From contig CAKZXL010000893.1 of the NCBI GenBank assembly GCA_937883885.1, positions 1 to 8,193 of the forward strand: a stretch of DNA of 8,193 nt, read 5' to 3'. The notes below the pieces were generated by a model. That model did no database searches, was not told the origin of the DNA, and saw only the letters and a program-made list of their open reading frames with translations. This stretch comes from an uncultured Aquincola sp. (GTDB taxonomy: Bacteria; Pseudomonadota; Gammaproteobacteria; Burkholderiales; Burkholderiaceae). Numbering within the stretch: the first letter of the stretch is position 1; every line of letters starts with the position of its first letter. The translations under genes and the position numbers were made by a program. Shown piece by piece: positions 1 through 8,047 of this stretch.

Positions 1-480
1 CAAGGCTTTCACCGCCGCCCGGGTGCTGGCCTTCCTGAGCTGCCTACACGGCAGTGGACTCCGAACATCGCCATCGACACATTCAGCGGCTCTTCCTGAG
101 CTGCCTACACGGCAGTGGACGTTTGGGTGACGTTGGAAGGCGTGCCGACGATTTCCTGAGCTGCCTACACGGCAGTGGACCTGCGCCTGCAGCGACGAAA
201 GGCCCGCATCGCTTCCTGAGCTGCCTACACGGCAGTGGACGGCCAGGTCGAAGGGCTGGCCGTTGGCATCCATTCCTGAGCTGCCTACACGGCAGTGGAC
301 GAGGCCACGCAGGACGATCTGCGCGCCATCGATTCCTGAGCTGCCTACACGGCAGTGGACGGTACGTGGATCACCGCGGCGAACCTCAACCATTCCTGAG
401 CTGCCTACACGGCAGTGGACGAATACTGCACTCCACTCACGGAGGTGCAGATTTCCTGAGCTGCCTACACGGCAGTGGAC
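1..480 (-). CRISPR. Type I-F CRISPR array, 8 repeats visible, continues beyond the left edge
   Basis: Eight identical 28-nt repeats lie at 32-59, 93-120, 153-180, 213-240, 273-300, 333-360, 393-420 and 453-480. On the minus strand each contains the hairpin CTGCCGTGTAGGCAG (5-bp stem, 5-nt loop) followed by the 8-nt handle CTCAGGAA. This is the canonical I-F repeat architecture recognised by Cas6f. The seven complete spacers are 32 nt, except 60-92, which is 33 nt; 1-31 is a spacer cut by the window edge. The handle orientation places the transcribed strand on minus, the same strand as the cas genes, with the leader on the 481 side, so 421-452 is the most recent spacer by position. All visible repeats are identical, and no degenerate terminal repeat is seen, so the distal end lies outside. 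Cas6f cleavage after each hairpin would give about 60-nt crRNAs with an 8-nt 5' handle. Confidence 0.98.
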
Positions 481-609: not shown

Positions 610-1176
610 TCAAAACCAGGGCACGGTGGCTTCGGCGCTCAATCCATAGCTGCTGAAATGACCTTCCGTGGCCTCGCGCTGCAGGGGGCCGTGCCGGACA
701 AAGAGCCGAAACGATGGCTGGCGGGTGCTGATGCTGCCGATGGTGACGAAGGGCAGCGCCAGCAGTTCCTGTGCGGAGTCCGGGATGCGCTGCGCTGCTT
801 CGTCTGCGCTGTAGCCGTGGCGCTTCATGGCTCGACGACGCAGACGGTCGACACCGCTCTTGGCCTGCACGCGGCTCACCACCCGGTAGCTGCACCCCTC
901 CGGTGCGGCTGCCCTCGGCTGCACGGTCAGATAGTCGTCGAAACGGCGCAACCATCCTGTCGCCTGTAACGCATCCAAAGCCGCATCGCTGCCATGCAGA
1001 CGCAGCACGGCGCCCAGTGTCGGCCGGCGGTCGTCGTGCTCAGGAAAGCTCACGCCGATGTCCTGTCGGGCCGTCTGCACCAGCGCTATATGCAAGCGTC
1101 CGAACAAGGCGTTCATCAGCTGATGTCTCGCCATCTCGGAGTCGGGCCGCAGCCGCAGATCGATGTAGCTGCGCAT
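610..1176 (-). CDS. cas6f: Cas6f (Csy4) CRISPR RNA endoribonuclease
   Basis: This 188-aa protein is essentially the length of Pseudomonas aeruginosa Csy4 (187 aa). Cas6f binds the repeat hairpin in pre-crRNA, cuts just 3' of the stem and stays on the crRNA 3' end as a subunit of the Csy complex. Visible signatures: N-terminal YIDLRLRPD, His29 in LFGRLH and Ser148 in LPFVTIGSIS at the same numbering as the catalytic His29/Ser148 of P. aeruginosa Csy4. Also present are SRVQAKS (101-107, with Arg102 and Gln104), an arginine-rich helix at 111-120 that would lie in the RNA major groove, RLFVRHGPL, and the family-typical C-terminus YGLSAEATVPWF. I chose the ATG at 1176, 4 nt after the csy3 stop, because it reproduces family numbering. 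An in-frame ATG at 1191 overlapping csy3 is the alternative. No obvious Shine-Dalgarno, suggesting translational coupling to csy3. Confidence 0.97.
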   Translation of the reverse strand: MRSYIDLRLRPDSEMARHQLMNALFGRLHIALVQTARQDIGVSFPEHDDRRPTLGAVLRLHGSDAALDALQATGWLRRFDDYLTVQPRAAAPEGCSYRVVSRVQAKSGVDRLRRRAMKRHGYSADEAAQRIPDSAQELLALPFVTIGSISTRQPSFRLFVRHGPLQREATEGHFSSYGLSAEATVPWF

Positions 1177-1180
1177 GGCA

Positions 1181-2209
1181 TCAGCCGGCATCGCCAAACA
1201 CGCCACCACGAATGACCGTGGCCACCACGAAGTGCTGCTGCTCCACCGGGGGCACCTTGTCTTTGAGCACCCAGGCGTCCAGCAGGTTGTAGAAGTCTTG
1301 TTTGTCCTTGGGCTGGCGGTAGGCCTTGCCCTGCGTGGTGACAGAGCCGTAGGGCTCCACCGCAATCGGGCCGTTCTCGTCAGCGCCGGGGTACCAGGTG
1401 TCGATGGTGCGCAGCGCGTTGCCGATCTTCTGAGAGTGGATGGCCGCTACCTCATGACCTGCCTCGCCGACCACATACAGTGTTTTGCTCTTGGATGAAC
1501 GCGCCTTGTCAAGGATCAGCTCCTGAGACGGAAACACCTCCTGCCCGGCACCTATGCGGACGAAGGCCGTCACCTGCAGCAGCACATGCCCTTCGCCGGA
1601 CAAACCGGACTCCAACAGCGCTGCCAGCGGCGCCAGGTCTGCCGGCGCCACCATGTCGCGCAGTGATCGGTCCAGCGCCTGGAACGTCCACTGGGCAGCG
1701 GCCTGACCGTCGCGCAGGTGCGCAACCCGTACCTCCACCTGCTCGGCGCCGACGCGGTTGCGCCACAGGAACCGACCATTGGTCAGGTTGGCCGCATAGC
1801 GCTGCGCCAGGGCGCCCAACCCCTGCTGCTGCACGTAGCCTTGCACCGTGCTCATCAGCTTGGCGCGGTAGGCCGCGTCGTTGCAGGCCGAGGGCTGACC
1901 CACGCCCGCGAGCACGCGCAAGGTGAACTGCACCTTCAGCGTGTCGGCTTCCGCGGGCAATGCAGCCACGTCCACGGTCTGCAGGTTGGGGTTCTCGATC
2001 AAGGCGTCCAGCTTGGCCGGGTCCTGGTCCTTGGTCTTGAGGCGGTTGGAGATGGTGCCGCGCACCGACTTCTCGCGCACACGAACGGGTGCCCAAGCCG
2101 CAGGCCCATCGCGGTCGGCCCAGTTGCCGGCAAAGAACAGCGCATCGGAAGGGTCCAGCTTTCGTTCGAACGCCAGCACGGTGGCGGTTTTGAGCTTGTC
2201 GTCAGCCAT
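1181..2209 (-). CDS. csy3: Csy3 (Cas7f), Cascade backbone subunit
   Basis: This 342-aa protein has the same length as P. aeruginosa Csy3. Six copies form the helical backbone that holds the crRNA guide and displaces every sixth base from pairing with the target. Recognisable segments are [19 protein letters not shown] near the N-terminus (9-26), [12 protein letters not shown] (45-56), [13 protein letters not shown] (140-152), FPSQELILD (226-234) and [14 protein letters not shown] (261-274), followed by GGVFGD at the C-terminus. The start at 2209 is supported by an AAAGGA ribosome-binding site 6 nt upstream (2216-2221); a longer reading frame extends back into csy2 but has no support. The gene lies 23 nt after the csy2 stop and 4 nt before cas6f, so it is in one operon. 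The short RBS-bearing gap fits the need for many more Csy3 copies than Csy1 or Csy2. Confidence 0.97.
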
Positions 2210-2232: not shown

Positions 2233-3252
2233 TCAGTCGTCGTCGCCCCAGGCGTCGATCAGTTGGGTGTCGTTGGACGGCACGAAGTCGTTGCGACAGC
2301 GGTAAAGCCCGGCGTCGGGCGCATAGTCCGCATACCAGAGCAGTTGTTCCACGGCTTGCAAATGGTGCGGTGCAATCCACTGCCCGACCGAATAGACGCT
2401 CTCGGTAAATCGGAACGGTGTGGTCGCATCGCGCGCGTTGGCCACGGCGCCCGGTGCATGCAGCTCGCCCAGCGCGCCGTAGCCCACCGGGATGGGTACC
2501 ACCCAGCCCAGTCCTTTCCTGTCGTGCTGCCAACTGCCAGGCGCTGACTTGTCGTCTTCTTGAGCGCTGGGGTTCCAGCGCCAGTTCATGCGCGAGAGTG
2601 ACAGCCACGCGTCCAATGGGGTGCTCTCTGGCTGCGTGGTGCGCAGCTCGGTCAACCGCTTGTCCAGCAGGTCTTCTCGCAGCACCAAGGCAAACCCCGG
2701 CAGCAGGAACTGGCGCAGGCCGCGGAAGGCCTGGGCTTTGTCGTCCAGAGTGCCTGTCCAGGGCAGCACCACCGGCCGCTTGCGCCGGCCAGTGCCAGCG
2801 ACTGGCAGGCAGCTGCCGCCAGCCACGCGTAAACCGCCCAGCAGCTCAGTCAGCTTCGTCAGATCAGCCTCTGCCGCGGCTGCATCAGGGGCAGACATCC
2901 AACACTCGCTGCTGACCGCCAACACCAGGCTGATCGTGAGGTGGATGCGCCCTTCCTCCACGATGGCCGCGGTGCTGCCATCTTTGTCGACAGGGTTGCG
3001 CGTGAGGTGGAAGTTCTTGACGTAGCGATCTCCGCTTACCTGCTCTTCATGGTCATGGCAAACCACGCCCACGCCCTTGATGCGCAGGTCAAGACCAGCG
3101 GCGCGAGCCTTACGTTCCAGTGCCCATGACAGGCCCATGAAGGCGGTGATCGACGGAAACCCATGCGTCAGCGGACTGGATATGGCGTTGGCGTTCTGCA
3201 CACGCAGGCGAGGCAGCACGACCAGATGGTCGAAGGTGGGGCAAACGGTCAT
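2233..3252 (-). CDS. csy2: Csy2 (Cas5f), Cascade subunit
   Basis: This 339-aa protein is slightly longer than P. aeruginosa Csy2 (about 327 aa). Csy2 pairs with Csy1 to form the tail of the Csy complex that caps the crRNA 5' handle and the PAM end of the target. The family signature [20 protein letters not shown] (11-30) is clear, followed by [30 protein letters not shown] (81-100), a LRVAGGS glycine segment (141-147), a [10 protein letters not shown] stretch, [15 protein letters not shown] and [13 protein letters not shown] motifs and a C-terminal [20 protein letters not shown] also match the family. The ATG overlaps the csy1 stop by 4 nt (ATGA), implying translational coupling. No frameshift or missing block is seen. 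Confidence 0.96.
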
Positions 3253-4595
3253 GCTGCCCCTTCGCTGACGCGCCGCTTCATGGGCATCGGCCAGGCCACG
3301 TTGACCAGTGCTTGCCTAGCCCAGTGCCGCAGCTCAGCGTCGCCCACCGCAGTGATGCCTGCTGCGCGCAGCCAGCCGTTGACCCAGTGGCCGAAACGTT
3401 CGGCCACCTGATCGGCCCAGGTGCCTGCCGCAAAGGCCGCGTTGAACGCCAGGTCGTCGGCGAGGAAGTCGTCTCGCGGCGGCAGCTCCGCACGATCTGG
3501 GTCAAGCCAGAGTTGTTCTGCCAGCGGCAGCTCGCAGTCGGTGGCGCGCGTCCAGCCTGCTTCGTGCCGCACCTGCACCGCGGCAGCGAAGACCGGCAAT
3601 TGCTCACCCAGCGCAAGGCCCAGACTGTCGCGTTGCCGCCGTGTTTCCATGGTGGGGTCTGGATCGGCGCGCAACAGGTCGATGAGTTGGCGCTTCAGGG
3701 TACGCACCTCACCCAACCAGCCCAGACAGTCCATCGCAGAACCGCGGCCCCGCATGTTGAACCCTCCCAAGTCCTGCCAGAGCGGTGGCAGTGACTCCAA
3801 GAGGTAGTTGACGCCGCCACGCTCGCTATTGAGTTGCGACACGTTTTGGGGCTTCGAGCCACCAAGCTTGCGGACTGCCAGTCCCTTGTATTCGGCGTAC
3901 CCGACGTCGTGGGCTTGCTTCTTCCATCGCGCTTCGCGCGCCGCTTTGGCTTCGTCACCAAAGCGCGCGTCTTGAATGCTGGTGTGCACTGCCTGCGCCA
4001 AGCTGCTGGAGAACATAGGCTGCAGCAGGTGGTAGCCGGTGTCGTCGGCGGGGTCGCCATCCACCAGCCAATACACCTGTTTGGCCAGTGCGTGCGAAGT
4101 GGGCTGCGGGTCATCTCGCAACAGACCGCAGAAGGCAGCCATCCAAGTCTGAGCGGTGGCTGCGTCGGCGTGCAGAGCGCGCTGCAGGTCGGCGTCTCCG
4201 GCCTGCATCCAGTCGAGCAGGCGGCGACCCTCGACTTCGACCTTGAGGAACTTGAAGACGTCCAGCGCGGCGGCGTTGCCGACCACGTCTTCAGCGAATG
4301 ACACACCCAGAGCGTGTGAACTGACCTCAACCCTGTCCGGCAACTTGTCGGGTGGCGCATGCAAGCTGCTGCCGCGGGCGTCGGGGTGGGTGGCCTTCAA
4401 CACGTGCGTCACGGCTTGGATCTGCGTCACGCGGCGGGCAGCGTCGGCCAGCCATGAGTCAGGCACGTAGCGCGATGCGGCTGGGTCGTCGTCGTCCTGC
4501 GACTTCAGTTTGGCCTCACGCCGCCCGTCGATGAACGCGACGATGGCGGCTCGGAAAGCGGCGGACCGCGGTCCGGGCTGGTCTTCTTCGGGCAT
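3249..4595 (-). CDS. csy1: Csy1 (Cas8f), Cascade large subunit
   Basis: This 448-aa protein (about 434 aa in P. aeruginosa) recognises the PAM and begins target unwinding, together with Csy2. Motifs: GNAAALDVFKFLK (106-118), KQVYWLVDGDP (172-182), GYHLLQPMFSSSLAQAVH (187-204) and the hallmark LGGSKPQNVSQLNSERGG (244-261). Asn107, Lys248 and Asn251 fall where P. aeruginosa Csy1 has Asn111, Lys247 and Asn250, residues tied to CC/GG PAM recognition in that protein (correspondence by eye). I chose the ATG at 4595 because AAGGGGGAG lies 5 nt upstream; a longer frame back to 4670 (GTG) would start beside the proposed promoter and adds residues with no family match. First gene of the csy1-csy2-csy3-cas6f operon; unlike many I-F loci it is 242 bp from cas3 and seems to have its own promoter. 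Confidence 0.96.
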   Translation of the reverse strand: MPEEDQPGPRSAAFRAAIVAFIDGRREAKLKSQDDDDPAASRYVPDSWLADAARRVTQIQAVTHVLKATHPDARGSSLHAPPDKLPDRVEVSSHALGVSFAEDVVGNAAALDVFKFLKVEVEGRRLLDWMQAGDADLQRALHADAATAQTWMAAFCGLLRDDPQPTSHALAKQVYWLVDGDPADDTGYHLLQPMFSSSLAQAVHTSIQDARFGDEAKAAREARWKKQAHDVGYAEYKGLAVRKLGGSKPQNVSQLNSERGGVNYLLESLPPLWQDLGGFNMRGRGSAMDCLGWLGEVRTLKRQLIDLLRADPDPTMETRRQRDSLGLALGEQLPVFAAAVQVRHEAGWTRATDCELPLAEQLWLDPDRAELPPRDDFLADDLAFNAAFAAGTWADQVAERFGHWVNGWLRAAGITAVGDAELRHWARQALVNVAWPMPMKRRVSEGAA

Positions 4596-4673: not shown

Positions 4674-4702
4674 AATGTAGGTAGCCAGGTGACAAGATGC
4701 AA
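4674..4702 (-). promoter_or_regulatory. Candidate promoter of the csy1-csy2-csy3-cas6f operon
   Basis: On the minus strand TTGCAT (4702-4697) is followed after 17 bp by TACATT (4679-4674). These match the sigma-70 -35 in 3 of 6 positions and the -10 in 4 of 6, with ideal spacing. Transcription would start near 4667, leaving about a 70-nt untranslated leader before csy1. The boxes are weak on their own. Support comes from the otherwise unexplained 242-bp gap, its lower G+C content here, and the crRNA-like target site whose PAM begins 3 bp from the -35 box. Confidence 0.45.
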
Positions 4703-4704
4703 TG

Positions 4705-4724
4705 CCATGCTTTGCTCAGTATTC
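4705..4724 (+). promoter_or_regulatory. Putative target (operator) of the mini-CRISPR RNA, with CC PAM
   Basis: CC at 4705-4706 is followed by ATGCTTTGCTC (4707-4717). The guide of the mini-CRISPR at 4783-4793 reads ATGCTGTGCTC. Positions 1-5 and 7-11 are identical and only position 6 differs, a position left unpaired in type I-F complexes; beyond that the match decays (13 of 18 overall). CC on this side is the established I-F PAM. A Csy complex bound here would cover DNA directly upstream of the proposed -35 box of csy1. Seed-only pairing is what is expected of a repressing, non-cleaving target. Confidence 0.75.
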
Positions 4725-4754: not shown

Positions 4755-4782
4755 TGCCACTGCTGAAGAGGCAGCTCAGGAA
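4755..4782 (+). repeat. Degenerate I-F repeat 1 of the mini-CRISPR
   Basis: It is 28 nt long and 22 positions equal the main-array repeat. Differences are at repeat positions 1, 2, 10, 12, 13 and 14, that is the 5' end, the closing pair (C-G changed to T-G wobble) and the loop. The whole 3' half from the second stem arm through the 8-nt handle (4769-4782) is unchanged, which is the part that becomes the crRNA 5' tag. Confidence 0.85.
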
Positions 4783-4800
4783 ATGCTGTGCTCGGCCTTT

Positions 4801-4828
4801 TGTCACTGCCGGAAAGGCAGCTTGCAGC
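4801..4828 (+). repeat. Degenerate I-F repeat 2 of the mini-CRISPR
   Basis: GTCACTGCC (4802-4810) and AGGCAGCT (4815-4822) match the array repeat with one base deleted near the start. The stem CTGCC/GGCAG is perfect with loop GGAAA, while everything after CT at 4822 has diverged. It keeps what Cas6f needs to bind and form a 3' end. It ends 9 bp from the cas3 stop codon. Confidence 0.75.
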
Positions 4829-4837
4829 TGGGAGACG

Positions 4838-7800
4838 TCAGTCGCGTCGCGCGAACCCTAGCCACGGGTGCCAGCGCCATCCCTGTGTACTTGCGGGCAC
4901 CTGCGTAGTTGCCAGCCGCTCCGCACAGCGGCGCAGCGGCAGGTCGAGGTGCTCCGACTGCTCGATCAGCAGCGCCAGCAAATCGAATTCGGCCCAGGGC
5001 CCGATGCGTGGCCCCAGCTCCAGGGCGATGCGATGGCAGCGGCCGTCGTCCGCCGGGTAAAGGTTCCGCTGCGGTCCCCGGCTCCGATCAGTCTCGATGC
5101 GGTGCAGCGCCAACGCCTCGCCGTCCTCGTCGGGCAAGAACACCACGGTTTCGGTCGGCTGCGTCTGTTCGCGGAAGGGCTGCTGCTGCGGTAGTACGCC
5201 GCTCAGGTGCACCCGGGGCGCCTGCCAGCAGGCGCTGGCGTTGAACTCGTCGGCGTTGCGGGGCAGCGCCTCACTGCGCGGCTGCATCGTGCGTTGCATG
5301 CGTTCGTGCTCCAGGTCCACCAGTCGCCGGGTGGGCAGTCGCAGGGAGCGCTCTCGTGGCCTTACACGCGGCAGCGCGTTGATGACCTCGTACTCCTCGG
5401 GCAGCAGCAGGTCGTGGAGCCAGGGTGTCTCCAGGCGCAGTGCATACGGCGGCTCTGCGCTGGCCGTCTCAAAGCCCGGGCGCAAGAAGACTGGGGCCTT
5501 CTTTCCGCCGTTGGCAAAGTAGCGCAGGTTCGTGTCAAACACGCGCATGTTCGGCAGGCTGCAGGTCTTGGCGCGATGCCGCTGCACACGCCCGGCCAGT
5601 TGGATGAGCGAGCGCATGGACGAAGGCTCCACCACCGCCCAGTCGGCGTCCCAGTCGCGACCAACCTCGCACACCGGCGAAGCGAGCACTACGAACAGAT
5701 GCTCGCCCTCTGCATGGCCGTCCAGCAACGCGCGCACCTCCGGTCGCCGATACACGGCTGCGGGCTCTCTGCGGTTGAAGGTGCTGTCCAGCAGGTGCTC
5801 GATGGCCGAGCGCTGTACCAACGGAAAACGGGCGTGATAGACGCACAGATGCAGGCGAACACCCTCAGGCGCACCAAGCCGGTAAAGCGCCTCGGCCACG
5901 GCGATCAAGGGGCCGATGTTGGCCATGCGCACCAGCCCGAAGCTGACGCGCTTACCCGTGAACGGATCGACCTCGGCGTGGTCGTGGTGCAGTTGCAGGC
6001 AAGCCTCGCGCACGTCTGCGGCAAAGGCTGCATGCCGTGCCGTCTCCGGTTGGTTGGGTTTCAAGCTCAGTGGCTGCAGCACCGCGCGACGCAACACGGG
6101 TGCCTTGACCAACTGCTGCGCGCGGCGCGCAACGAACTCTTGATGGGCGTTGCGCAGTGCCTTGGCATCCGCACATGCCGCCGTCTGCACACCGTATTCG
6201 TCGGTCCACAGGCAGGGCACAGCCAGCACATCTGCCCCTTGGCCACCGTGGAGGCCGCGGTTGCGTTGGTAGGCCACACGGCCACTGCGGTAGGCCATGA
6301 ACATGCCTTCCACCAGCTTGGGCGGCAGCGTGGCAGACGACAGCACGACTCGTGTGCCCAGCATCCCAGCCCATTGCACCAAGCGGGTGAGGGCAGGCAG
6401 GTCGGCCAGGTCGAAATCGTCAAGTTCGTCCAGCACCAGGTCGCCACTGAGCAGGCGCAGCATCGGCGCGATCTGGCGGCCGGCACGCACGGCCTCCGTC
6501 GCGGGCGTCAGGTGATCGACCGTGCACACCAGCAGGGGCGCGACCAGGAGCTTGCGGACGTCGGGGTCGTCGAGCGCCCGCGTGAGCAACGGATGGTGGG
6601 TCGGATCCCCCTCATACAGAACATGGCTGTCTTCCTCCAGGAGCTTCTGCGCTGAGGCCGAGCCGCTGGCTTCCTTTTGCTGTTCGTAGAACTCGAAGAG
6701 GTCGCGATTGGCCGAGCCGCCCACCAGCACTGCCAGGTCGTCATCGCGCAGTTGCAGGTCATCGCGGTAGCTTCGCCCGGTCTGCAGGGTCAACGTGCGC
6801 AAGCCCAGCGCGTAGGTGGCGCGCAAGCCCTGCTGAGGGTCCGCCAGCGCGTACAGCAGGCGCGCGTTGGCGAGGGTCTTGCCGCAACCGGTGGACGCCA
6901 TGTTGACGATGAAGGCGCCGCGCTCCTGCGCAGCCTGCCTCATGGCCGCAGCGGCATCTGCCGCTTTGTCTTGCCAGGCAAAGCGTGGCTGTGCGCTGCG
7001 TTTGCGCAGCCCTTTGTGCTGCGCAATGGCCGGCAGCTCGCGCACGAAGCTTGGCAATGCGTGGGCAATCAGCGAGGCTTCGTGGGCTACGCCCAACAGG
7101 TGTTCGTCCAGTGGCTGCTTGAGTCCCTTGGTGTCGGTGTTGGCGTACAGGTTGCTGCCCGCGTCGCCGGTCACTCTCAGCGGTGAGTGCCGGTCGAGCG
7201 CCGAGTAGTGGTGGTCGGCCAGCATCAGACACAGGCGAGCCAGGTGCATGACATAAGGGTCGTCGAGCCAGCCGGCCGGGTGCTGTGCGTGTAAGGCCAG
7301 CAGGCGCTTGGCGACACGGGCGGCCTGGCCGCACCACTTCGGCGCCACCACCGGCAAACGGTCCGCCGGCTGCCAGTACGCCAGCGTCTCTTCTGCGCTG
7401 GCGTTGGGTGCGAGCTCATTCCAGGCATGGCTGACGCCTGTCAACGGATCGCTGAGCCAGACCGGCTTGAACTCGGGCACGCGCCTGCCCCACCGGGGCC
7501 GAGGCTCACCGGGCGGCGCCGTGGTCGGCACGGCAGGAAGCCGATGGTGGGTGACGACCAGCCAGGCCACCGCGGCCGCCAGGGGCGGCAGTTCGCGAAA
7601 TGGGAACGGTCTGACGTCGGGATCGACGCCGTCACGCTGGTACCGGCCAGGCTCCACCCACAAAGACTCATCGGCCGCGTCGGCGTTGGACAAGCGGCGC
7701 AGCCAGCCTTCATCGTCGTCGCTGCCAACGAAGGACTGAAACATGCGCAAAGACACCCACTCGTGGCGGTAGAGGTTTCGTTCGGTCAGTTGCCCACGCA

Positions 7801-8047
7801 GCCGGCGCTGGAAGGCGACGCTGGCCTTGCCCAGGTCGTGCAGCAGGGCCGCGAGTTGGGCCAGCAGCCGGATGGGCTGCGCACTGTGCCAGTCGTTCTC
7901 GTTCGCGTGTCGAAAGGCGTCCGGGCGTGGGGTGTCGTTCGGGCCAGCGGCATGCGCGTCGGATCGCAGTTCGTCCATGGGTGGCAGGTGCGCGGCTGTG
8001 CGGAGTCGTTGGCCCAATCGTAGTGCGCCCTTCCCACCCCAAAACAA
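4838..8047 (-). CDS. cas3: Cas3 nuclease-helicase of type I-F, lacking the usual N-terminal Cas2 domain
   Basis: This 1069-aa HD nuclease and superfamily 2 helicase is recruited by the target-bound Csy complex to nick, unwind and degrade DNA. HD domain: NDWH (His54), LLHDLGK (His70-Asp71), YRHEW (His95), VVTHHR (His167-168) and LADHH (278-280). Helicase: Walker A ASTGCGKT (384-391), DELD (540-543), SAT (571-573), SFGLVRMANIGPL (702-714) and QLAGRVQRHR (816-825). The C-terminus TQGWRWHPWLGF matches I-F Cas3. In I-F the Cas3 HD domain normally follows a Cas2 domain of roughly 100 residues; here only about 50 unrelated residues precede NDWH, and the frame upstream of 8047 shows no Cas2-like sequence. 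The start is uncertain: TTG at 8047 lies behind a G-rich purine tract, while ATG at 7978 (1046 aa) has no good RBS. It is divergent from flgG and 242 bp from csy1, so probably a separate transcript. Confidence 0.95.
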   Translation of the reverse strand: MFWGGKGALRLGQRLRTAAHLPPMDELRSDAHAAGPNDTPRPDAFRHANENDWHSAQPIRLLAQLAALLHDLGKASVAFQRRLRGQLTERNLYRHEWVSLRMFQSFVGSDDDEGWLRRLSNADAADESLWVEPGRYQRDGVDPDVRPFPFRELPPLAAAVAWLVVTHHRLPAVPTTAPPGEPRPRWGRRVPEFKPVWLSDPLTGVSHAWNELAPNASAEETLAYWQPADRLPVVAPKWCGQAARVAKRLLALHAQHPAGWLDDPYVMHLARLCLMLADHHYSALDRHSPLRVTGDAGSNLYANTDTKGLKQPLDEHLLGVAHEASLIAHALPSFVRELPAIAQHKGLRKRSAQPRFAWQDKAADAAAAMRQAAQERGAFIVNMASTGCGKTLANARLLYALADPQQGLRATYALGLRTLTLQTGRSYRDDLQLRDDDLAVLVGGSANRDLFEFYEQQKEASGSASAQKLLEEDSHVLYEGDPTHHPLLTRALDDPDVRKLLVAPLLVCTVDHLTPATEAVRAGRQIAPMLRLLSGDLVLDELDDFDLADLPALTRLVQWAGMLGTRVVLSSATLPPKLVEGMFMAYRSGRVAYQRNRGLHGGQGADVLAVPCLWTDEYGVQTAACADAKALRNAHQEFVARRAQQLVKAPVLRRAVLQPLSLKPNQPETARHAAFAADVREACLQLHHDHAEVDPFTGKRVSFGLVRMANIGPLIAVAEALYRLGAPEGVRLHLCVYHARFPLVQRSAIEHLLDSTFNRREPAAVYRRPEVRALLDGHAEGEHLFVVLASPVCEVGRDWDADWAVVEPSSMRSLIQLAGRVQRHRAKTCSLPNMRVFDTNLRYFANGGKKAPVFLRPGFETASAEPPYALRLETPWLHDLLLPEEYEVINALPRVRPRERSLRLPTRRLVDLEHERMQRTMQPRSEALPRNADEFNASACWQAPRVHLSGVLPQQQPFREQTQPTETVVFLPDEDGEALALHRIETDRSRGPQRNLYPADDGRCHRIALELGPRIGPWAEFDLLALLIEQSEHLDLPLRRCAERLATTQVPASTQGWRWHPWLGFARRD

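What the first reader, a model, noticed from the sequence alone, without database searches (positions are those of the whole stretch)
4705..4724. Guide of the mini-CRISPR matches a PAM-flanked site at the csy1 promoter: predicted autorepression of the Csy operon
The guide seed ATGCTGTGCTC (4783-4793) and ATGCTTTGCTC (4707-4717) agree at 10 of 11 positions. The sole seed mismatch is at position 6 and the next at position 12, the very positions flipped out by Csy3. CC, the I-F PAM, precedes the site. Twelve specified bases matching by chance within about 240 bp is very unlikely. The PAM is 3 bp from the proposed -35 box. Pairing limited to the seed would allow binding without triggering Cas3. 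Such a loop would sense free Csy complex: when spacer crRNAs are scarce or anti-CRISPR proteins disable the complex, the operon is derepressed.
Basis: partly seen in the sequence, partly recalled or inferred. Interest (0 to 1): 0.95.

Follow-up and report, generated by a model that had tools for sequence, protein, structure and literature searches.

The report
CRISPR operon's self-repressing mini-guide
A tiny CRISPR-like gene beside a bacterial type I-F CRISPR operon carries a guide that matches a site at the operon's own likely promoter, and related bacteria carry different guides with correspondingly different sites, so the CRISPR complex is predicted to hold down its own production.

Summary
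A two-repeat mini-CRISPR (4755-4828, +) lies between cas3 and csy1 of a type I-F operon. Its 18-nt guide matches a CC-flanked site (4707-4723) at 13 of the 15 positions that are not every-sixth bases; the next best of the window's 1382 CC sites reaches 10. Of 200,000 shuffled guides, 6 did as well in the gap.

In 53 of 107 csy1 loci the locus's own guide matches a CC-flanked site upstream of csy1; the other 15 dinucleotides give 0-1 each. Positions 6, 12 and 18 match only as base composition predicts, while 1-5, 7-11 and 13-17 match at 73-100%. The PAM often abuts a TTGACA-like -35 box.

Autorepression of csy1 is therefore the best explanation, but it is untested and the window's own promoter match is weak. 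The kind is known: CreR elsewhere and, from recall, a type I-F1 mini-array.

In relatives, 37 of the 53 loci have a long leader before csy1, and at least 29 of these hold a mini-ORF with a rare codon pair, resembling CreT toxins. The window lacks one.

The parts
4755..4782 (+). psiR1, first degenerate repeat of the mini-CRISPR, with exact 8-base handle CTCAGGAA
   Evidence: 6 of 28 mismatches to the array repeat
4783..4800 (+). 18-nt guide
   Evidence: between the two repeats
4801..4828 (+). psiR2, second degenerate repeat with exact stem
   Evidence: 12 of 28 mismatches; stem exact, folds as the canonical hairpin
4705..4706 (+). PAM (CC)
   Evidence: CC precedes the site in 53 of 107 loci; the other 15 dinucleotides give 0-1 each
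4707..4723 (+). target site (protospacer positions 1-17)
   Evidence: 13 of 15 non-sixth positions match the guide
4697..4702 (-). predicted csy1 -35 box TTGCAT (weak)
   Evidence: placed by comparison with relatives; letters checked
4674..4679 (-). predicted csy1 -10 box TACATT (weak), 17-base spacer
   Evidence: consensus scan finds none
3249..4595 (-). csy1, first gene of the operon presumed to be repressed
   Evidence: NCBIfam TIGR02564 above cut-off; frame checked
2233..3252 (-). csy2
   Evidence: TIGR02565 above cut-off
1181..2209 (-). csy3
   Evidence: TIGR02566 above cut-off
610..1176 (-). csy4/cas6f, presumed processor of the guide RNA
   Evidence: TIGR02563 above cut-off
4838..8047 (-). 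cas3f (start codon uncertain)
   Evidence: TIGR02562 above cut-off
32..480 (-). canonical CRISPR array, eight identical 28-base repeats

Best explanation
The mini-CRISPR in the cas3-csy1 gap encodes a guide that matches a CC-flanked site just upstream of csy1, and its RNA is predicted to load into the Csy complex and bring it to that site, so that the complex would block the likely csy1 promoter and limit its own synthesis. Shown by sequence: the two degenerate repeats, the guide, the PAM, the three-block match, the gene order, and the same arrangement with different but matching guide-site pairs in about half of the main set of I-F loci examined. Inferred: transcription of the mini-CRISPR and cutting by Cas6f to an 8-nt handle + 18-nt guide + hairpin; Csy binding next to -35; repression; no Cas3 cleavage, because the R-loop stops near position 17; and release when crRNAs or anti-CRISPR proteins occupy the complex. 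In function this would be a type I-F CreR.
For: Window match 13 of 15, next best of 1382 CC sites 10; 6 of 200,000 shuffled guides as good in the gap. All 32 mini-CRISPRs that were found without looking at targets (31 of 80 loci, plus the window) have an own-guide CC site of at least 11 of 15. 58 of 112 loci against 2 of 335 swaps reach 12. CC only. Seed-only selection: 54 of 107 against 1 of 664 swaps, and unselected positions 13-17 match in 35-49 of 54 while 12 and 18 match in 10 and 6. Joint guide and site changes in near relatives, L038/L040 position 3 and L092/L094 position 8. -35/-10 score of 8 or more directly after the PAM in 23 of 53, 1.9 expected. Gap under 150 bases: element in 0 of 35; 150-700: 34 of 40; over 700: 15 of 26. 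16 short-leader loci, the window among them, have no toxin-like mini-ORF between site and csy1.
Against: No expression data. The window's promoter scores 7 of 12, reached by about 15% of shuffles, and the general scan finds none. psiR1 alone does not fold best as the canonical stem. The nearest held relative, L001, has a 43-base gap without the element. In a further set of 29 more distant loci only 3 were positive. Three loci with repeat-like handles (L052, L075, L101) reach only 11, and L111's best site is on the other strand. In 37 of 53 relatives the site lies before a CreT-like leader rather than directly before csy1. The guide's own promoter was not found.
Confidence: 0.78

Rival explanations
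1. CreTA antitoxin: the guide represses an RNA toxin gene (creT) lying between the site and csy1, and csy1 is not the purpose.
For: In Acinetobacter I-F a creA/creT pair sits in this same gap (PMC10097628 passages and sections 10-11). 37 of 53 relatives have long leaders, and the 29 scorable mini-ORFs hold rare codon pairs.
Against: The window's 110-base leader holds no ribosome-binding site plus mini-ORF of this kind; the only frame the loose scan reported there starts in the -35 region. Its fold is no better than shuffles.
Confidence: 0.1
2. The complex mainly represses the mini-CRISPR's own promoter, which overlaps the site, and csy1 is affected only by the way.
For: The site lies upstream of the guide in its direction of transcription, and in 10 of 53 loci it touches or overlaps the first repeat.
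Against: The conserved promoter elements next to the PAM face csy1; no conserved promoter position was found on the guide strand.
Confidence: 0.07
3. The mini-CRISPR is a decayed remnant and the match is chance or a no longer used leftover.
For: The window's psiR1 is degenerate and its promoter weak; presence of the element changes often on the csy1 tree (35 changes over three states).
Against: Swap, PAM and shuffle controls, joint guide/site changes, and mismatches in the window confined to 6, 12, 14 and 15 among positions 1-17.
Confidence: 0.05

Closest known systems
CreR, cas-regulating RNAs of types I-B, I-E and V-A (Liu et al. 2023, Cell Host Microbe; not held, known here through passages of PMC13131331 and PMC12737573)
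   Same: mini-CRISPR by the cas operon, guide partly matching a cas promoter, predicted autorepression
   Different: type I-F, CC PAM, pairing in 5-base blocks; no experiment for this locus
Regulatory mini-arrays of Shmakov et al. 2023, Nucleic Acids Res (title seen in reference lists; not held; content recalled: mini-arrays matching cas promoters, cas8 above all, and one type I-F1 mini-array tested)
   Same: same idea, and probably the same subtype and place
   Different: whether this locus or its relatives are listed there could not be checked
CreTA of Acinetobacter type I-F (PMC10097628)
   Same: same cas3-csy1 gap, two degenerate repeats, CC PAM, short guide, Csy-dependent repression
   Different: target there controls a toxin RNA and lies downstream of its promoter; no such toxin found in the window
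[quoted passage not shown]
   Same: degenerate repeats around a guide partly matching a nearby promoter; the long-leader relatives found here share a mini-ORF with doubled rare codons
   Different: type I-B in archaea; the window itself has no such mini-ORF

Membership tests
CreR (cas-regulating RNA) | mini-CRISPR with degenerate repeats beside the cas operon | tested here: met
   31 of 80 relatives as well
CreR (cas-regulating RNA) | guide with limited complementarity to a PAM-flanked site at a cas promoter | tested here: met
   match and PAM; the promoter itself is predicted and weak in the window
CreR (cas-regulating RNA) | Cas-dependent repression of cas genes | not testable with these tools
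   needs expression data
CreR (cas-regulating RNA) | release by competing crRNAs or anti-CRISPR proteins | not testable with these tools
   needs expression data
CreTA (type VIII toxin-antitoxin) | creA: degenerate repeats around a guide with a PAM-flanked target | tested here: met
CreTA (type VIII toxin-antitoxin) | creT: toxic RNA gene (mini-ORF with ribosome-binding site) behind the target | tested here: not met
   none found in the window's 110-base leader; found in most long-leader relatives
Type I-F CRISPR-Cas | cas3f, csy1-4 and 28-nt repeats | tested here: met
   NCBIfam equivalogs above cut-off, array; cas1 was not found in the window and would lie outside it

The most novel reading that the evidence does not exclude
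In type I-F systems the cas3-csy1 gap is a slot for one Csy-guided switch read in three 5-base blocks. In many lineages the switch sits over a promoter that makes a tRNA-starving CreT minigene in the csy1 leader, so that losing Csy releases poison and new Csy together. In others, such as this window, the toxin is gone and the same switch is a pure autorepressor. Toxin and toxin-less forms interchange repeatedly (at least 9 changes on the csy1 tree).
Probability: 0.5. Interest if true: 0.72.

Novelty: new member of a known kind. Interest (0 to 1): 0.52.

Why it matters
It turns one unproved match into a co-varying set of guide-site pairs in type I-F, with strict CC dependence and free sixth bases, and gives natural pairs for testing how far partial pairing binds without cutting. 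If true, an I-F immune system monitors its own free effector and refills it when phage inhibitors or many crRNAs tie it up. The same slot in relatives suggests that self-regulation and toxin addiction are two versions of one switch.

Tried and rejected
Chance match: rejected by swap, PAM and shuffle controls.

Selection for mismatches at positions 6, 12 and 18: these first looked depleted against 25%, but they are close to the composition expectation, so I claim only that they are free.

CreT in the window: not found. Window leader as a relic of the long-leader element: it folds no better than shuffles (z 0.40), so not claimed. Fixed promoter for the mini-CRISPR: no preferred TATAAT-like position.

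Similar DNA to the gap on plasmids: no match in 72,556 records. Csy1 searches gave 16 plasmid and 2 phage records, not followed further. Rfam at gathering threshold: 0 matches.

The first target search left 7 of 32 loci with weak best sites because I had cut out the 30 bases next to the mini-CRISPR; with these included, all 32 had a site of 11 or more. The swap control belongs to the narrower region (35 of 992 swaps at 11 or more, many between related guides); wider controls are. With all 17 positions scored (12 or more), 55 of 107 own loci against 13 of 655 swaps.

Further set: only 3 of 29 loci positive; 18 have no candidate handle and 8 a best score below 12. The csy1 start was only estimated there. 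L034 was left out of the mini-CRISPR counts because its gap holds an array. Loci L081, L082, L085, L086 and L087 were dropped as duplicates from counts out of 107.

The count of 34 of 37 long leaders with a mini-ORF includes at least one chance start inside the -35 box (L015); a stricter rule gives 32 of 37.

Full report
What is in the window. The window holds a type I-F system on the - strand: cas3f (4838-8047), csy1 (3249-4595), csy2, csy3 and cas6f, each above NCBI's cut-off for its family, and an array of eight identical 28-base repeats at 32-480. Between cas3 and csy1 lies a 242-base gap. On its + strand, opposite to the genes, are two repeat-like stretches, 4755-4782 and 4801-4828, around an 18-base spacer. 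The first keeps the exact last eight bases of the repeat, which become the 5' handle of a crRNA. The second keeps the exact stem that Cas6f recognises and folds that way; the first, folded alone, does not prefer the canonical stem (the roles of handle and stem are general knowledge of type I-F).

The match. The spacer ATGCTGTGCTCGGCCTTT resembles ATGCTTTGCTCAGTATTC at 4707-4724, which follows CC. Of positions 1-17, mismatches are at 6, 12, 14 and 15. Leaving out every sixth position, which Csy3 turns away from the target (general knowledge), 13 of 15 agree. Of the 1382 CC sites in the window the next best reaches 10. Among 200,000 shuffles of the guide, 6 reach 13 somewhere in the gap.

Relatives. 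A profile of 29 Csy1 proteins gave 80 loci in genome records, the best 80 of 376. A search for repeat pairs that did not look at targets found a divergent mini-CRISPR before csy1 in 31 of these 80, plus the window (L034, whose gap holds an array, was left out). All 32 have a CC-preceded site on the guide strand, between mini-CRISPR and csy1, with at least 11 of 15 matches to their own guide.

Controls. After removal of 5 duplicates, 53 of 107 loci qualify with CC before the site; AT, CA and CG give 1 each and the other twelve dinucleotides none. When sites are chosen on positions 1-5 and 7-11 alone (9 of 10 or better), 54 of 107 own loci qualify against 1 of 664 swapped pairs. The positions not used for choosing then show 49, 43, 48, 44 and 35 matches of 54 at 13-17, but 10 at 12 and 6 at 18. 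Over the 53 loci, positions 6, 12 and 18 match at 0.23, 0.15 and 0.12, where base composition alone predicts 0.20, 0.16 and 0.20. They are thus free. Agreement drops to about half at 19-23. Some near-copies remain; 46 of the 53 guides are distinct. Of loci with repeat-like handles that miss the mark, L052, L075 and L101 reach 11 and L111's best site is on the other strand.

Co-variation. In the near relatives L038 and L040, position 3 differs between the guides and differs the same way between the sites; among positions 1-17 the only other differences are in the site, at 6 and 17. In L092 and L094 the same happens at position 8, with guide-only differences at 12 and 17 and a site-only one at 6.

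Place of the site. On the csy1 strand the PAM reads GG. A hexamer with at least 5 of 6 bases of TTGACA begins 0-3 bases after it in 23 of 53 loci, and a combined -35/-10 score of 8 or more lies there in 23 of 53 against 1.9 expected from shuffles. The complex would thus sit directly upstream of, and against, -35. In the window the matching hexamers are TTGCAT (4702-4697) and TACATT (4679-4674) with 17 bases between. This is only 7 of 12, a score that about 15% of shuffles reach, and the general promoter scan finds nothing. The promoter is therefore argued from relatives, not from the window.

Gap size. Loci whose cas3-csy1 gap is under 150 bases have the element in 0 of 35 cases, those with 150-700 bases in 34 of 40, those above in 15 of 26; four positive loci had no cas3 found upstream. 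The nearest held relative of the window, L001, has a 43-base gap and no element. In 29 more distant loci only 3 were positive, against 1 of 297 swaps, so the element is common in some branches and rare in others.

Two forms. The 53 positive loci fall into 37 with a leader of 221 bases or more between site and csy1, and 16, the window among them, with 152 or fewer. Long leaders commonly carry a hairpin, then a ribosome-binding site with a mini-ORF (32 of 37 by the stricter rule), then a second hairpin ending in a GGGGATTCTA-like motif (30 of 37). In an alignment of 22 of them, 14 of 17 predicted pairs have at least one double change that keeps the pair. In the 29 mini-ORFs that could be scored (5 of the 37 had none that passed and 3 lacked a readable csy1 frame), the rarest codon pair was rarer than in any of 2000 random csy1 stretches of the same length. 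In 17 of 29 it is a doubled codon: AGA AGA in 10, TTA TTA in 4, TCA TCA in 2, ATA ATA in 1. Non-coding DNA also contains rare codons, so that test alone is weak, but the doubling, usually at codons 8-9, is not expected from it. H. hispanica CreT carries two consecutive AGA codons and H. hubeiense CreT two AUA codons, and both starve the cell of a rare tRNA (PMC8501985 passages). The long leaders are therefore most likely CreT toxins. No such mini-ORF was found in the window.

Mechanism. The simplest account is that the mini-CRISPR RNA, cut by Cas6f, loads into Csy as a short crRNA; that the complex binds the site because PAM and three 5-base blocks pair; that Cas3 is not called because the R-loop does not extend; and that RNA polymerase is kept from -35 of csy1. 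Only the sequence features are shown. In the Acinetobacter I-F CreTA, a similar RNA with 17 of 20 bases paired represses its target in a Csy-dependent way and needs positions 2-5, 7-9 and 13-17 (PMC10097628 passages), which fits the three blocks seen here; there, however, the site lies downstream of the promoter.

Evolution. On a csy1 tree of 105 rows, the three states (no element, long leader, short leader) need at least 35 changes, and long and short forms interchange at least 9 times (quick tree, 24 of 101 inner branches drawn open for low support).

Known or new. CreR autorepression is described for I-B, I-E and V-A (PMC13131331 passage; PMC12737573 passages). From recall, Shmakov et al. 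2023 reported mini-arrays matching cas promoters and tested one of type I-F1; the paper is not held and only its title was seen in reference lists. Ten literature searches listed no paper whose title or abstract start describes I-F csy1 autorepression by a mini-CRISPR, but most subscription journals are outside the library. I therefore rate the window as a new member of a known kind.

Noticed in passing
Long-leader relatives, e.g. L006, L009, L035, L041, L050, L072, L076, L078, L103, L106, between the guide's site and csy1: Leaders of 221 bases or more with covarying hairpins and a mini-ORF holding rare, often doubled codons (AGA AGA, TTA TTA, TCA TCA, ATA ATA), resembling tRNA-starving CreT toxins but in bacterial type I-F.
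   Followed up: partly
L030:5034-5698 and L002:5029-5711 (- strand); similar antisense sequence seen by eye in L020, L033 and L066: A FitA-like antitoxin and PIN-domain toxin gene pair inside the cas3-csy1 gap (Pfam PF22513 and PF01850 for L030 and L002).
   Followed up: partly
L006, L016, L024, L035, L036, L060, L061, L079: Two tandem CC-flanked sites for the same guide, about 15-25 bases apart.
   Followed up: no
L034, about 5670-5940: The cas3-csy1 gap holds a CRISPR array of five repeats on the opposite strand instead of a mini-CRISPR.
   Followed up: no
L010, L013, L015, L022, L027, L028, L066, L088, L089, L109: The target site touches or overlaps the first repeat of the mini-CRISPR itself (10 of 53 loci), so guide promoter and csy1 promoter probably overlap.
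   Followed up: no
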